From contig CM053259.1 in NCBI GenBank assembly GCA_028583405.1, positions 16,708,594 to 16,772,593 on the forward strand: a stretch of 64,000 nucleotides of DNA, given 5' to 3'. Under the pieces are notes generated by a model. It was not told where the DNA came from. It worked only from the letters and a program-made list of their open reading frames with translations, and did no database searches. This document shows positions 45,043 through 51,536 of this stretch, in pieces. Within the stretch, counting starts at the first letter, position 1. Each line of letters opens with the position of its first letter. Origin of the DNA: Pogonophryne albipinna (taxonomy: Eukaryota; Chordata; Actinopteri; Perciformes; Artedidraconidae). Both the position numbers and the translations under genes were made by a program.

Positions 45043-45047
45043 AATGC

Positions 45048-45441
45048 TGTGATGCCCCTGTGGGTTCATCAGTAGAGAGGAGGTGGCTGTGCTGTGGTGA
45101 TTGGTGATTGCAGTAACTCAGGGCACCTGGGTCTGGTGTCCTGCGGCTATTTAACGCCTCTCTGCTCCTCTCTGTTCTCTCTCTGCTTCTCCCTGCAGGC
45201 ACACCGGTTTTGTTGAGTATGATAGGAGTTTATTCAGTTGCTTTACTTTGTGCACTTCAACACTCTCACACACATACATGTCCATACAATCCTCACCCTG
45301 CATTTACATTACTGATACCACTGACTTCCACACCTCATACTTTACTGGTTTTGACTTGTTTGTCTTAAATAAACACCATTACCTACCCGTTGATATGTTG
45401 TGTCTCCTTTTTGTTGTGGCCTTTTGAGCCAGGTCGCAACA
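45048..45441 (+). repeat. 5' LTR, 394 bp
   Basis: It begins TGTGATGCCCC and ends GGTCGCAACA (TG...CA). A TATA-like TATTTAA lies at about 45149 and a poly(A) signal AATAAA at 45368-45373. A pyrimidine tract ending CCCTGCAG near 45200 would make a plausible splice acceptor. It differs from the 3' LTR by one extra base in the GCAGGCACACCGG stretch (GCAGGCCACCGG in the 3' copy). Confidence 0.96.
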
Positions 45442-45443
45442 AA

Positions 45444-45461
45444 TGGGGGCTCGTCCGGGAT
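45444..45461 (+). promoter_or_regulatory. Primer-binding site for tRNA-Pro
   Basis: Eighteen bases, TGGGGGCTCGTCCGGGAT, start two bases after the LTR. This is the classic complement of the tRNA-Pro 3' end used to prime minus-strand DNA in many retroelements. Confidence 0.93.
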
Positions 45462-46009
45462 TATTTGTTTAAAAAGTTTGTGTAGTGCTCAGAGCACATG
45501 GTGTCATTGAGCAGCTGATTCATTGTTGTGGTCCAGCTGTGTGCTGGCTTGTCGCTGCTATTTGGGGGACACATCATGTCTTTTGGGTTTTAGGAGGCTG
45601 TAGTGTTTGACATGTCGTCAGGTTTTGTGTGCCAATCAGAAGGTAAGATGTTGCTGTTTGTTACGCTTTTGTAAAAGAGATTTTCCCCGCTAGGCTTAAG
45701 TGGCGTTTCCCCTTGGGTTGCGTCTGTTTTTTTTTTTTTTTTCATAGTGTTGTGGCGACGTGGTTAGTGTCAGCTGTTTTCGGACAGCTGTCTCGGGGGC
45801 ACGTCCGCGTGAGTTCTTGGTGTTACATGCGTGCAGGTTGCTCCATAACTCCGCCGGGTTCCAGTGCGTAATTACCCACCGCAAGCCACATGAAGACTAG
45901 GTGAGATTAGGAAGATTTTGTTTCGGCAGTTAGGGGGAAATTCTCTGTTGGGTTAATCTTATGCCCATGCGTGTTGGCAGGTTAATACTTTGCTTTCTGA
46001 TTGGTTATT

Positions 46010-48253
46010 ATGACTTCTTTGTCAGCGTTTGTGGATGCGCCCTCAGTGTCTTTCTTAGATGATTGCCAGAAGGCGCAGTTGGTCGAAATAGCAGAGCACT
46101 ATAACATTGCTGTTGTGGGGAGCAAGCGGAAACATGACATTAAAACTGTCATTGTGTCATCTTTGTTTGAGCAGGGGGTGTTGCAGAAGAGTGAGTCTGG
46201 TGCAGCAGGGTTCGTGCCGGTAGTGGTTCAGACAGCTGGTTTAACGTTCGAGCAGCAAAAGGAGCTTTTGGCCATGCAGTTTGATCAGGAGAGATTGCGG
46301 TTGGAGTTGCGGTTGGAGCAGGAGAAGTTGCAGTTGGACATGAGGTTGGAGCAGGAGAAGTTGAGGTTGGAGCAGGAGAAGTTGCAGTTGGAGATAAGGG
46401 GTCAGCAGCAGGAGGTAGAGAAGCGTTTAGAGGTGGAGAAGGTGCTGGAGGTGGAAAAGATGAAATGTGAGGTTGAACATGCTAGATTACGGCTGATGGG
46501 AGAGGGCAAGTTTTCTCCAGGGGAGGATGGTGGTGATAGGTCGGCATCAGGCAGTGGCGATATCATTTCTTACTTGCGATTAGTGCCAAAATTCAATGAG
46601 CGTGACCCGGACATTTTTTTCACTCTATTTGAACGCATAGCAGAGGCAAGAAACTGGTCAGATTCGGACAGAGTGCTGTTACTTCAGTGTGTACTCACTG
46701 GGCGAGCACAGGAAGCCTATTCAGCTGTTTGTGGCGAAAATGCTTTGGACTATGATAGAGTAAAATCAGCGGTGTTGAAGTCTTACGAACTGGTTCCTGA
46801 AGCGTATCGTCAAAGGTTCAGAAGTTGGGTCAAGGGAGATAAACAGACACATGTGGAGTTTATCCGTGATTTAACTTCTCATTTTCAGCGGTGGTGCGCG
46901 GCAGCAAAGGTTGCAAGTTTTGACGGTCTTTGTGAGCTCATTGTCTTGGAACAATTTAAAGACATTCTCCCTCAGCGTGTGGCCACTTATGTGAATGAAC
47001 AGAAGCCTTCCACCGCGTTTAGAGCTGCTGAATTAGTGGACGATTTTGTGTTGACACATAAGGGCAGTTTTACTGAGAAGTATTCTAGGGGTGATTGGAA
47101 ACGTGGAGAAGACAATGGCTATGCCCGCGGTGGTGCAAAGTTTTCACCAGGCTCCTCCCGTAGATTTGTAGGTCCAGGGCGATCCGAGGGCGCCAGAGTG
47201 GGCCAATGTCATTATTGCCGAGAAGAGGGTCATTGGAAGGAGCGGTGTCCGTTGCTGGAACCTGAGGGGAAGCCTCGTTCTTCATCACATGCTCCAGCCA
47301 TGTGTTGTTCTGCCGTTTTGGTTAAAAAGTCGCAGGGTGTAAGATCGGGCATGGTGCCTGTTAAGAAGCTGGTTTGTGCCGACTTGGAGGTGGGTTCTGT
47401 TTTTGAGCCGTTCATAACGGAAGCCGTTGTATCAATGGTCGGTAGTGACAAGTATGTTCCGATTAAGGTGTTGCGTGACACAGCAGCTAGATACTCATTT
47501 ATTGTTGAGTCCGTGTTGCCTTTTTCGTCAGAGACAGAAACAGGGGATTTTGTGCTGATGAGGGGCATGGAGATGGGCTTGATTCCTGTGCAACGTCATA
47601 CAGTAGTGCTGGATTGTGAGCTGGTACGGGGAGTTGTGTCTATCGGCGTGCGTCCCGCGTTGCCACTTGATGGGGTACAGATGATTTTGGGCAACGATCT
47701 AGCTGGTAGTGCTGTGTGGGCGGGTGTGCCACCGCCTGTGGTGATTTCCAGGCCGTTGGCATCTGTAGAGCCAGATGAGAGCGGTTTGCAATTTCCAAGT
47801 GTGTCTCCAGTTTATACTGTTACGCGTGCGCAGAGCCGTAGGATGTCGACTGGCCTGCCTGTTTCGGAGTCTGGAAAATGTGGTCCAGCACGGTCCTTGG
47901 ACTTTGAGATCGAGACAAAGAAGAAGGAGAAGAAAGAGAGGAAACCCTGCAAAGCGAACAAGAGGAGGCCGAACAAGAGGAGGCCGAAGAAGAGGAGGCC
48001 GAAGAAGAGGAGGCCGAAGAAGAGGAGGCCGAAGGAGGTCGGCGCGCCCAAGAGGCCGATGAGCGCCTACATGCTGTGGCTCAACGCCAGCCAACCCAAG
48101 GAGGAGTGGGACAGTGGCGGAGGAGGAGCGTCCTCCAGTCCTAAGAAGGAAATTAAAAAAGCTGGAATTAAGAAGGATATTGGGTTGTCGTGGATCCCTT
48201 TGGGGCCCCGTCTTAAGGGGGGGGCTGTGATGCCCCTGTGGGTTCATCAGTAG
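46010..48253 (+). CDS. Gag-protease-like polyprotein fused to an SSRP1-like HMG fragment
   Basis: The start chosen is the ATG at 46010 (MTSLSAFVD), giving 747 residues; the frame is open a little upstream but without an ATG. Residues about 80-163 are a long Glu/Leu/Gln-rich coiled coil with LEQEKLQL repeats. Residues about 186-350 are a capsid/SCAN-like region (FNERDPDIFFTLFERIAEA ... LVPEAYRQRFRSWVKG). A zinc knuckle C-X2-C-X4-H-X4-C lies at residues 400-413. A retropepsin-like region around residue 490 reads DTAA where DTGA is expected and ends in MILGNDLAG, so catalysis is doubtful. A TRAQSRRM linker follows, and then no polymerase. From about residue 636 come basic residues, five KRRP repeats and an HMG-box piece. 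The stop lies in the 3' LTR. Confidence 0.9.
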   Translation: MTSLSAFVDAPSVSFLDDCQKAQLVEIAEHYNIAVVGSKRKHDIKTVIVSSLFEQGVLQKSESGAAGFVPVVVQTAGLTFEQQKELLAMQFDQERLRLELRLEQEKLQLDMRLEQEKLRLEQEKLQLEIRGQQQEVEKRLEVEKVLEVEKMKCEVEHARLRLMGEGKFSPGEDGGDRSASGSGDIISYLRLVPKFNERDPDIFFTLFERIAEARNWSDSDRVLLLQCVLTGRAQEAYSAVCGENALDYDRVKSAVLKSYELVPEAYRQRFRSWVKGDKQTHVEFIRDLTSHFQRWCAAAKVASFDGLCELIVLEQFKDILPQRVATYVNEQKPSTAFRAAELVDDFVLTHKGSFTEKYSRGDWKRGEDNGYARGGAKFSPGSSRRFVGPGRSEGARVGQCHYCREEGHWKERCPLLEPEGKPRSSSHAPAMCCSAVLVKKSQGVRSGMVPVKKLVCADLEVGSVFEPFITEAVVSMVGSDKYVPIKVLRDTAARYSFIVESVLPFSSETETGDFVLMRGMEMGLIPVQRHTVVLDCELVRGVVSIGVRPALPLDGVQMILGNDLAGSAVWAGVPPPVVISRPLASVEPDESGLQFPSVSPVYTVTRAQSRRMSTGLPVSESGKCGPARSLDFEIETKKKEKKERKPCKANKRRPNKRRPKKRRPKKRRPKKRRPKEVGAPKRPMSAYMLWLNASQPKEEWDSGGGGASSSPKKEIKKAGIKKDIGLSWIPLGPRLKGGAVMPLWVHQ
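47917..48165 (+). other. Captured host sequence resembling SSRP1 (basic linker and partial HMG box)
   Basis: The translation has a KKKEKKERKP stretch, then KRRP repeats, then GAPKRPMSAYMLWLNAS (48041-48091), directly followed by QPKEEWD and then SGGGGASSSPKKE. The GAPKRPMSAYMLWLNAS text is the N-terminal strand and first helix of the HMG box of SSRP1, a subunit of the FACT histone chaperone. KEEWD and the Gly/Ser-Lys-rich tail also occur in SSRP1, in the same order, but about 35 residues of the box between NAS and KEEWD are missing. Nothing like it belongs to Gypsy Gag or protease. The sequence is intronless, which suggests capture through RNA. Confidence 0.82.
47957..48031 (+). repeat. Five-copy 15-bp in-frame tandem repeat (KRRP units)
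   Basis: Units are AACAAGAGGAGGCCG (two copies) and AAGAAGAGGAGGCCG (three copies), which expand a basic N/K-KRRP motif. The next codons run directly into the HMG fragment. Confidence 0.95.
48215..48225 (+). promoter_or_regulatory. Polypurine tract
   Basis: AAGGGGGGGGC lies directly before the 3' LTR, the expected priming site for plus-strand DNA. It overlaps the coding frame. Confidence 0.85.
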
Positions 48254-48618
48254 AGAGGAGGTGGCTGTGCTGTGGTGATTGGTGATTGCAGTAACTCAGG
48301 GCACCTGGGTCTGGTGTCCTGCGGCTATTTAACGCCTCTCTGCTCCTCTCTGTTCTCTCTCTGCTTCTCCCTGCAGGCCACCGGTTTTGTTGAGTATGAT
48401 AGGAGTTTATTCAGTTGCTTTACTTTGTGCACTTCAACACTCTCACACACATACATGTCCATACAATCCTCACCCTGCATTTACATTACTGATACCACTG
48501 ACTTCCACACCTCATACTTTACTGGTTTTGACTTGTTTGTCTTAAATAAACACCATTACCTACCCGTTGATATGTTGTGTCTCCTTTTTGTTGTGGCCTT
48601 TTGAGCCAGGTCGCAACA
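48226..48618 (+). repeat. 3' LTR, 393 bp
   Basis: Same sequence as the 5' LTR except for one missing base. It is followed by the target duplication AATGC. Its AATAAA near 48546 lies in the sense direction of stt3b. Confidence 0.96.
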
Positions 48619-48623
48619 AATGC

Positions 48624-50488: not shown

Positions 50489-51536
50489 TAATATTGTCAG
50501 AGACAACAACAATATAAGCCCGTCAGTGGCAAAGAAAACAAGTATATTTGTGGAAATTGCCCAACAAGATTACATTCTGAAAATATCATCTCGGTTGAAA
50601 AATACTGAAGTTACCCTATATACAGTAAATATAGCTTTGTATAAATCCCAGATCCACTTACAAAGAGAAAAGGCAACTATCGCAATATTGGGAAAAGCCA
50701 GATACATTCTGGACTATAACTCATTGCATACTCTATATAACACACTAATATTGCCATATCTGATTTACTGTGTGGAGATTTGGGGAAACACGTACAAAAC
50801 CAACCTACAGCCGTTATGCACATTACAAAAAAGGGCTATAAGAGTTATCAATAATGTTGGATATCTTGAACACACTAATGTATTATTTTTGAAGTCACAC
50901 ATATTGAAGTTCATTGATCTGGTTAAATTTAAAACGGCACAAATCATGTACAGAGCCAGACATAATCTACTTCCTAGGAAATTAAAAACATTGTTCGTAG
51001 ACAGAGAGGGTGGGTATAATTTGAGAGGAAATCTACATTTTAAACAACTCAAGGTCAGACAACTCTGAGAAGTATGAGTATAACAATCTGTGGGGTGATT
51101 TTATGGAATGGTTTGGAGCAGGAGTTAAAACAAAGCACAAGCATAATTCAGTTTAAAAGGATGTACAGAAACACTTTTTTGGAAAACTATGAGAATGAAG
51201 AAAGGTGATTGAAGATGAGAAATGATTGTATATGTATGTATAAATATAAATGTATGTAGGAATAACTTGCATAATGATTTAAAGGACAATCATTGATCAA
51301 GTAAGGGGTGGGAATTAATAAGCATTTGCTTCCTCCTACTCCCTTTCGGACACATATGATTTATTATTATTATTAATATGAAAACTTTTTTTTTGTTTTT
51401 TTGTTGAATATACAAATATTACTATGAATGTGGATAAATACTGTATTATAACAATACGGTATACTGTTTTTTCACATTTGTTATTTGTTATTTTTTAATC
51501 TGTTCGAAATAAAGACTGAAATGAAATGAAGAGTGT
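50489..51536 (+). mobile_element. 5'-truncated LINE (L2/CR1-like group), 3' end
   Basis: The frame at 50526-51068 contains the reverse-transcriptase thumb and C-terminal region: KARYILDYNSLHTLYNTLIL, PYLIYCVEIWGNTYKTNLQP, LQKRAIRVINNVGY and REGGYNLRGNL. After VRQ a one-base deletion shifts the frame, and the protein continues as LRSMSITICGVILWNGLEQE to about 51208. The 3' UTR holds the block GCTTCCTCCTACTCCC and the element ends in AATAAAGACTGAAATGAAAT. A short tandem tail is typical of the L2/CR1-like groups, not of L1. The catalytic fingers and palm are missing, so it is dead. Confidence 0.82.

What the first reader, a model, noticed from the sequence alone, without database searches (positions are those of the whole stretch)
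45048..48618. LTR retrotransposon that replaced its pol gene with a fragment of the host SSRP1 chromatin gene
The Gag-protease frame runs on, without a stop, into a basic stretch and GAPKRPMSAYMLWLNAS. That text is the start of the SSRP1 HMG box, followed by the later KEEWD and Gly/Ser-Lys words in the right order. Reverse transcriptase, RNase H and integrase are missing. This is the architecture of a transducing retroelement, like acute transforming retroviruses or plant Bs1. A Gag protein carrying a DNA/nucleosome-binding HMG piece could target chromatin or alter packaging. The HMG box lacks its middle part, so whether it folds is open.
Basis: partly seen in the sequence, partly recalled or inferred. 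Interest (0 to 1): 0.9.

Follow-up and report, generated by a model that had tools for sequence, protein, structure and literature searches.

The report
Retrotransposon Gag fused to host SSRP1
In an Antarctic plunderfish genome, an LTR retrotransposon carries, in place of its own polymerase genes, a spliced and shortened piece of the fish's chromatin gene SSRP1 joined in frame to its coat protein; it is present in likely some 260 copies and is likely moved by a sister element that keeps those genes.

Summary
Confirmed and extended. Window 45048-48618 is a complete LTR element: LTRs with 0 mismatches in 393 aligned bases, TSD, PBS, polypurine tract, and one ORF (SCAN Gag, zinc knuckle, protease motifs). 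From 47889 to 48178 the same frame reads host SSRP1. The source is the one SSRP1 gene found in this genome: 77/77, 31/32 and 31/32 base matches, with three exon junctions crossed without introns. A sister element in the same genome keeps the integrase start and RNase H; its homology stops within two bases of where SSRP1 starts and resumes where it ends, so SSRP1 replaced pol. Genome counts: 263 SSRP1-core matches besides the host exon, against 78 for the sister. SSRP1 copies lie on one side of a 100/100 branch, and most have near-identical gag to the sister but diverged protease and tail: recombination that implies shared particles. Tail indels shared between copies are all in frame (10 of 10), but mostly in repeats, and amino-acid changes show no constraint. 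Related fusions occur in Gymnodraco. This is Bs1-like host-gene transduction, in a vertebrate and at high copy number. What the tail does is untested.

The parts
45043..45047 (+). Target-site duplication AATGC (left copy)
   Evidence: Read; same five bases at 48619-48623
45048..45441 (+). 5' LTR, TG...CA, 394 bp
   Evidence: 0 mismatches and 1 gap against the 3' LTR
45444..45461 (+). Primer binding site TGGGGGCTCGTCCGGGAT (tRNA-Pro type by recall)
   Evidence: Read; whole leader 95% identical in the sister
45442..46009 (+). Untranslated leader
   Evidence: Bases 1-545 of the 559 tested (45442-46000) align to the sister leader at 95%
46010..48253 (+). Single ORF: Gag-protease-SSRP1 tail; stop lies inside the 3' LTR
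   Evidence: 12 of 18 sampled copies with a gag start keep one ORF through the tail
46239..46412 (+). Repeat-rich Gag coiled-coil tract (LEQEKLQLE words), length-variable
   Evidence: 17 of 20 distinct indels are multiples of 3; 38 of 47 copies aligned
46796..47062 (+). SCAN-type capsid domain
   Evidence: PF02023 E 5.7e-19
47150..47182 (+). Approximate recombination boundary: upstream the common subfamily is 0-1.7% from the sister's gag (46523-47122), downstream 11-13% (47183-47296)
47204..47251 (+). CCHC zinc knuckle
   Evidence: PF00098 E 0.012, below Pfam cut-off; C-x2-C-x4-H-x4-C read
47477..47698 (+). Aspartic protease, motifs DTA (47477-47485) and ILGND (47684-47698)
   Evidence: Read; same motifs in relatives; the assignment is recalled; no Pfam hit
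47889..47920 (+). SSRP1 block 1, RS(L/F)DFEIETK
   Evidence: 31/32 to SSRP1 exon L042:6532-6563, E 1e-11
47923..47954 (+). SSRP1 block 2, end of exon a (KEKKERKPCK)
   Evidence: 31/32 to L021:1381-1412; runs on ungapped across the exon a|b junction, 48 of 51
47955..48034 (+). Tandem KRRPK repeats: five 15-nt units here, one in SSRP1
   Evidence: 2 to 7 units in 45 of 47 copies, 1 and 0 in the other two
48016..48092 (+). SSRP1 block 3, exon b, N-terminal arm and start of helix 1 of the HMG box (structure by recall)
   Evidence: 77/77 identical to L021:1509-1585
48097..48113 (+). SSRP1 block 4, exon b|c junction (KEEWD)
   Evidence: 17/17 across the spliced junction
48127..48177 (+). SSRP1 block 5, exon c|d junction (SSSPKKE-KKAG-KK)
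   Evidence: 47/51 across the spliced junction
48175..48225 (+). Retained 3' end of the parent element incl. polypurine tract (48215-48225); GGA at the joint fits both SSRP1 and parent
   Evidence: Aligned to L067; joint letters
48226..48618 (+). 3' LTR, 393 bp
48619..48623 (+). Target-site duplication AATGC (right copy)
   Evidence: Read

Best explanation
It is a non-autonomous SCAN-Gag LTR retrotransposon in which a spliced fragment of the host's SSRP1 message sits where a sister element in the same genome carries pol, likely put there by template switching during reverse transcription and likely moved in trans by that sister. Shown: gag-protease, SSRP1 and the parent's 3' end are joined without filler; three SSRP1 exon junctions are crossed; the SSRP1 part is read in SSRP1's own frame as the tail of Gag-protease; the copies compared lie together on one side of a 100/100 branch; the gag of most of them has recombined with the sister's. 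Inferred: SSRP1 mRNA was packaged by chance, RT jumped from the element RNA into it and back, deleting pol; the product kept PBS, leader, LTR ends and Gag, so its RNA enters particles together with sister RNA and is reverse-transcribed and integrated by the sister's enzymes. The captured piece then shrank by in-frame deletions while its basic KRRPK unit multiplied. The tail most likely acts, if at all, as a basic nucleic-acid or nuclear-binding extension of Gag; this last step is a guess at about 0.3.
For: LTR/TSD/PBS/PPT anatomy. SSRP1 identity, splicing and frame. Only one SSRP1 gene found in the genome (PF03531, 1 match of 1 candidate). No hit of element pieces other than SSRP1 itself in C3:26388000-26402000 (blastn E up to 1e-3). 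Sister element: 78 matches to its pol linker; among its close copies open frames up to 1,622 aa, besides one of 3,946 not inspected; RNase H before the same polypurine tract; integrase start directly after protease. Joints. SSRP1 core: 264 matches including the host exon, reversed-pattern control 0, first 100 places listed. Pro tree: SSRP1 rows and sister rows each one side of a branch, 100/100 (45 of 47 copies and 14 sister pieces, 38 unique rows). Gag recombination: 46523-47122 common subfamily 0-1.7% from sister, 47183-47296 11-13%, while the older subfamily is 3-13% across 46523-47296 (7 and 5 copies, 33 and 12 of 45). Recent activity: 11 of 18 copies with both LTRs have no LTR mismatch, the most is 5 in 394. 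Tail motifs in frame in 42 of 47 copies; tail indels shared by two or more copies in frame 10 of 10.
Against: No RNA, protein or mobilisation data, so expression and trans-mobilisation are inferred. Integrase core and RT of the sister were not read, only their ends. Tail substitutions show no constraint (pN/pS 1.19; shared changes 2 synonymous, 8 non-synonymous), and within SSRP1 copies protease is only weakly constrained (0.58). The in-frame count is weak: six of the ten shared tail indels are 15-nt repeat-unit changes, three more lie in a triplet-rich AAG stretch and one is a triplet beside AAGAAG, so slippage alone would keep the frame; singleton tail indels are in frame in 14 of 21. A chimeric read-through transcript followed by splicing would give much the same joints as template switching.
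Confidence: 0.87

Rival explanations
1. The SSRP1 tail is a neutral passenger: the element spreads because it keeps Gag, packaging signals and LTR ends, and the tail is merely tolerated while it erodes.
For: No amino-acid constraint in the tail; HMG box broken in all versions read; different deletions in different subfamilies, and the HMG part absent in P0002; 5 of 47 copies have a shifted or cut tail; in-frame indels mostly sit in 15-nt and triplet repeats.
Against: All 10 indels shared by two or more copies are in frame, including 4 that are not 15-nt changes (4/4 against 1/3, p 0.012; against shared leader, LTR and PPT indels 2 of 9 after dropping two that lie in flanking DNA, Fisher p 0.021; with those two kept 3 of 11, p 0.026). 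The non-coding control was alignable in only 18 (leader) and 42 (LTR) of 47 copies and is itself rich in homopolymer changes. The basic unit grew from 1 to mostly 2-7 copies.
Confidence: 0.55
2. The tail is a selected chromatin or nuclear tether of Gag, like the foamy-virus Gag chromatin-binding signal, that helps the enzyme-less element reach the nucleus or choose sites.
For: 29 K/R and 3 D/E in a 47-residue stretch, against 21 and 5 in the 37-residue SSRP1 counterpart; frame preserved in shared indels; SSRP1 as part of FACT binds nucleosomes (recalled; FACT name).
Against: No constraint on substitutions; 31 residues of the HMG box are missing and Pfam finds no HMG box; no localisation or insertion-site data.
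Confidence: 0.25
3. Capture by transduction: an element integrated in or beside SSRP1 and a read-through transcript was spliced and packaged.
For: Gives spliced SSRP1 exons in sense orientation; read-through transduction is a described route (PMC13317346, passages).
Against: No element remnant found in C3:26388000-26402000; the captured piece starts and ends inside coding exons, joined to element sequence on both sides, and pol is lost at the same joints.
Confidence: 0.12
4. An old intrinsic HMG-like domain of this Gypsy lineage, unrelated to SSRP1.
For: None found.
Against: 77/77 DNA identity to the host exon; relatives P0004 and P0009-P0011 run on to the integrase side instead (11 of 215 hits read); the tail search found only notothenioid fusions and SSRP1 proteins.
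Confidence: 0.005

Closest known systems
Maize Bs1 LTR retroelement
   Same: LTR element that holds segments of host genes, forming a chimeric gene that is transcribed and translated (PMC13317346 and PMC5408686, passages read); lack of a full pol is recalled
   Different: Bs1 took pieces of three plant genes; here one vertebrate chromatin gene, some 263 matches in one genome, with an identified sister and visible gag exchange
LTR-mediated retroposition in animals (Tan and co-workers, as described in PMC5408686, passages; original not read)
   Same: RT template switching between element RNA and cellular mRNA gives chimeric cDNA with LTRs
   Different: Described there as a source of retrocopies; here the chimera became a multiplying element family with its own subfamilies
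Acute transforming retroviruses (recalled)
   Same: Spliced host coding sequence replaces viral genes, Gag-host fusion protein, needs a helper
   Different: Env-less retrotransposon, germline copies, host piece is a chromatin-factor fragment with a broken domain
TR-GAG elements of plants (search listing only; definition recalled)
   Same: Non-autonomous LTR elements that keep gag and lack pol
   Different: Pol is replaced by host sequence fused to Gag-protease

Membership tests
LTR retrotransposon | LTR pair, TSD, PBS, polypurine tract | tested here: met
Ty3/Gypsy with SCAN-type Gag (Gmr1-like; name recalled) | SCAN capsid domain | tested here: met
   PF02023 E 5.7e-19
Ty3/Gypsy with SCAN-type Gag (Gmr1-like; name recalled) | Pol with integrase before reverse transcriptase | tested here: not met
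   Element has no pol. Sister: integrase start after protease, RNase H at the far end. Relatives: P0037 integrase then RVT_1, P0019 integrase then RNase H
Gene-transducing LTR retroelement (Bs1 type) | Host-derived spliced coding sequence between the LTRs | tested here: met
   Three exon junctions crossed
Gene-transducing LTR retroelement (Bs1 type) | Chimeric ORF transcribed and translated | not testable with these tools
   No RNA or protein data; ORF open in 12 of 18 sampled copies with a gag start
Non-autonomous element with gag only (TR-GAG type) | gag present, pol absent, mobilised in trans | tested here: inconclusive
   First two met; trans-mobilisation inferred from gag exchange with the sister
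HMG-box protein | Complete HMG box | tested here: not met
   31 residues between NAS and KEEWD missing, QP in their place; no PF00505 hit

The most novel reading that the evidence does not exclude
A vertebrate retrotransposon swapped its polymerase for a chromatin-protein tail: the SSRP1-derived basic, KRRPK-amplified extension makes Gag a chromatin tether, and this host-borrowed tether helped the enzyme-less element overtake its own autonomous partner (263 to 78) inside shared particles.
Probability: 0.22. Interest if true: 0.88.

Novelty: new variant of a known kind. Interest (0 to 1): 0.74.

Why it matters
Host-gene capture by LTR elements is known from maize Bs1, from plant surveys and from oncogenic retroviruses. 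Here donor gene, captured cDNA, intermediate forms, sister element and recombinants can all be read in one animal genome; I recall no vertebrate case as complete. It lets one propose an order of steps: capture, in-frame shrinkage, repeat growth, gag renewal from the helper, burst. It also poses a testable question: can a Gag tail from a chromatin factor help an element that has no integrase of its own?

Tried and rejected
Chance or low-complexity basic match: rejected by codon-shuffle control and 77/77 identity. An apparent 2,356-aa frame at C7:36635244 that might have been Gag-Pol with SSRP1: it is an assembly gap read as X. Purifying selection on gag from the pooled copies (pN/pS 0.22): not used, because the shared differences come from two gag types produced by recombination. 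SSRP1 copies against the sister give dN/dS 0.17 (gag, older set), 0.16 (protease), 0.31 (gag, common set, few changes), 0.57 (linker) and 1.35 (the 114 bases after the boundary); part of that time may precede the capture, so it does not prove constraint after it. Searches of the phage collection, Rfam and tRNA genes found nothing; the solved-structure search gave SSRP1 and other HMG proteins. Ten paper searches: only (8 papers; 10 of 119 listed) used SSRP1 or HMG terms, and no listed title or abstract start reports SSRP1 in a retrotransposon; the library holds only open-licence papers.
Full report
What genome this is. The window lies at 16708594-16772593 of contig C18 of G000. Contig lengths 59,391,674; 50,992,350; 47,603,259; 45,138,401; 45,007,767; 44,948,606 and 43,946,785 equal those printed for chromosomes 1-7 of the Pogonophryne albipinna assembly (PMC10716251, passages only); total size and contig number differ a little (1,073,210,567 bases in 861 contigs against 1,074,502,020 in 1,111). 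It is an Antarctic plunderfish (Notothenioidei, Artedidraconidae).

The element. LTRs at 45048-45441 and 48226-48618 differ by one gap and no substitution; AATGC is duplicated on both sides; a primer binding site follows the 5' LTR and a polypurine tract precedes the 3' LTR. One ORF, ATG 46010 to stop 48253, codes for a coiled-coil tract, a SCAN capsid (E 5.7e-19), a weak CCHC knuckle, and protease motifs DTA and ILGND (the protease label is from motifs, Pfam gave none). No polymerase, RNase H or integrase match was found.

The SSRP1 part. PF03531 finds one SSRP1 gene in the genome, on C3 near 26.39 Mb. Its exons were delimited by GT/AG sites and spliced in a script. Element 47912-48177 aligns in SSRP1's own reading frame with 198 of 206 aligned bases identical; 48016-48092 is 77/77. 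The element runs without gap across junctions a|b (48 of 51, counted on the first repeat unit), b|c (17/17) and c|d (47/51). The best of 200 codon shuffles scores 83 against 310. The bases just before this, unexplained at first, are SSRP1 too: 47889-47920 match an upstream exon 31/32, E 1e-11. The blocks span residues 388-652 of the icefish SSRP1 P0122, with large internal losses. No version that I read keeps residues 398-513, so capture in one piece is an inference.

The loss of pol. A relative without SSRP1, P0004 (species not given), runs from protease into integrase. Its linker finds close copies in the plunderfish genome (150 of 718 candidates scored) with frames up to 1,622 aa, besides one of 3,946 not inspected. 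For one of them, C19:9118533, separate pieces were read: LTR ends (79-96%), leader (95%) and protease (91%) match the window element; RNase H lies before the same polypurine tract. Integrase core and RT were not read there. Homology to the sister stops at about 47887, within two bases of where SSRP1 begins, and resumes at about 48175, where SSRP1 ends; GGA at the 3' joint fits both partners. So SSRP1 replaced pol in what looks like a single exchange.

The family. Patterns with up to 3 mismatches give 264 SSRP1-core matches (one is the host exon; 100 places listed), 78 sister pol-linker matches and 365 protease-motif matches, which include both kinds; reversed-pattern controls are 0. I held 47 distinct copies: 27 from the best DNA and protein hits and 20 chosen by hand from the list, so not a random sample. 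All 47 hold alignable SSRP1 DNA, and 42 read PMSAYM, EEWD and KKAG in the frame set at 47847. Of the 20 chosen by hand, 18 have the gag start and 12 of these are one ORF through the tail. Of 18 with two LTRs, 11 have no LTR mismatch and the most is 5 (one of the 18 was compared over 174 bases only).

History. On a 401-column protease piece, the SSRP1 copies and the sister copies are each one side of a branch (100/100; bootstrap not fully settled; 45 of 47 copies were long enough, with 14 sister pieces, 38 unique rows of 59). One copy of 47 (L036) still has the exon-a words TVKVVKEKK; Gymnodraco proteins P0003 and P0006 still have KAVESKKQYEIARQELEDR, lost in the window copy; P0002 (species not given) lacks the HMG part. 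The NAS-to-KEEWD deletion of 31 residues is shared by the window copy, P0003, P0005, P0006 and L036, and no held copy has an insertion there. Gymnodraco is in another family, Bathydraconidae, so the capture likely predates that split, unless it was passed sideways. The KRRPK unit occurs once in SSRP1 and 2 to 7 times in 45 of 47 copies (1 and 0 in the other two).

Recombination. In 33 of 45 SSRP1 copies gag from 46523 to about 47150 is near-identical to the sister's while the bases after it are 5-12% away; in the other 12 (L007, L020, L033, L034, L036, L037, L039, L045, L050, L053, L055, L059) gag is 3-14% away throughout that stretch (six sister gag pieces, 97-base windows). Finer windows on 7 and 5 copies give 0-1.7% up to 47122, 2.9% in 47123-47182, then 11-13%. 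In the leader and the first 240 gag bases both sets are closer to the sister (0-3% and 0-6%), so the left boundary is not fixed. Exchange between the two families happened after the capture. RNA exchange in one particle is the usual route (inference), and it is the main support for mobilisation in trans. Direction, sister to SSRP1 element, is likely but not proven.

Does the tail matter? For: tail indels shared by two or more copies are in frame in 10 of 10. In non-coding parts 1 of 6 shared indels in the leader (18 copies) and 2 of 5 in the 3' LTR alignment (42 copies) are multiples of three; two of those five lie in flanking DNA and one in the G run of the polypurine tract. Leaving out 15-nt repeat changes, the tail has 4 of 4. 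Against: three of those four lie in an AAG-rich triplet stretch and the fourth is a triplet beside AAGAAG, so slippage would explain them; singleton tail indels are in frame in 14 of 21; substitutions in the tail look unconstrained (pN/pS 1.19); the HMG box is broken; and the family is so young that frames would be open anyway. I hold the passenger reading at 0.55 and the tether reading at 0.25. Foamy-virus Gag has a basic chromatin-binding signal (PMC7828637, passages); the likeness is an analogy only.

Literature. Bs1 and LTR-mediated retroposition are described in reviews I read by passage (PMC13317346; PMC5408686). Ten searches of an open-licence library were run; the two with SSRP1 or HMG terms listed no paper whose title or abstract start reports an SSRP1-bearing retrotransposon.

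Noticed in passing
window 45221-45366 and 48398-48543 (inside both LTRs): After about its first 173 bp the SSRP1 element's LTR holds some 120 bp more than the sister's LTR (L067:663-942, 280 bp); origin of that stretch not traced.
   Followed up: partly
window 46239-46412: The Gag coiled-coil tract varies in length between copies, often by 12, 21, 33 or 54 nt; 17 of 20 distinct indels are multiples of three.
   Followed up: partly
L064 (C7:14987260-14991310) and L061 (C6:29251880-29255930): Shorter derivatives: L064 has both LTRs without mismatch but has lost most of the leader, gag and the first part of protease, so a smaller LTR-SSRP1 form exists; L061 lacks everything before the end of protease in the fetched stretch.
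   Followed up: no
L060, L055: L060 has the same further deletion in both LTRs, suggesting another LTR subfamily; in L055 no 3' LTR was found in the fetched stretch.
   Followed up: no
window 50526-51068 (+): A 180-aa frame with the text PYLIYCVEIWGNTYKTNLQPLCTLQKRAIRVI, which by recall resembles the end of a LINE-type reverse transcriptase; Pfam gave only one sub-threshold hit, TnsC, E 0.13.
   Followed up: partly
window 47699-48247 (-): Antisense 182-aa frame with LLRPPLLRPP repeats is the mirror of the KRRPK repeat tract.
   Followed up: yes
G000:C188:51185-51514: A sister-type match in an open frame of 3,946 aa, perhaps an assembly gap; not inspected.
   Followed up: no
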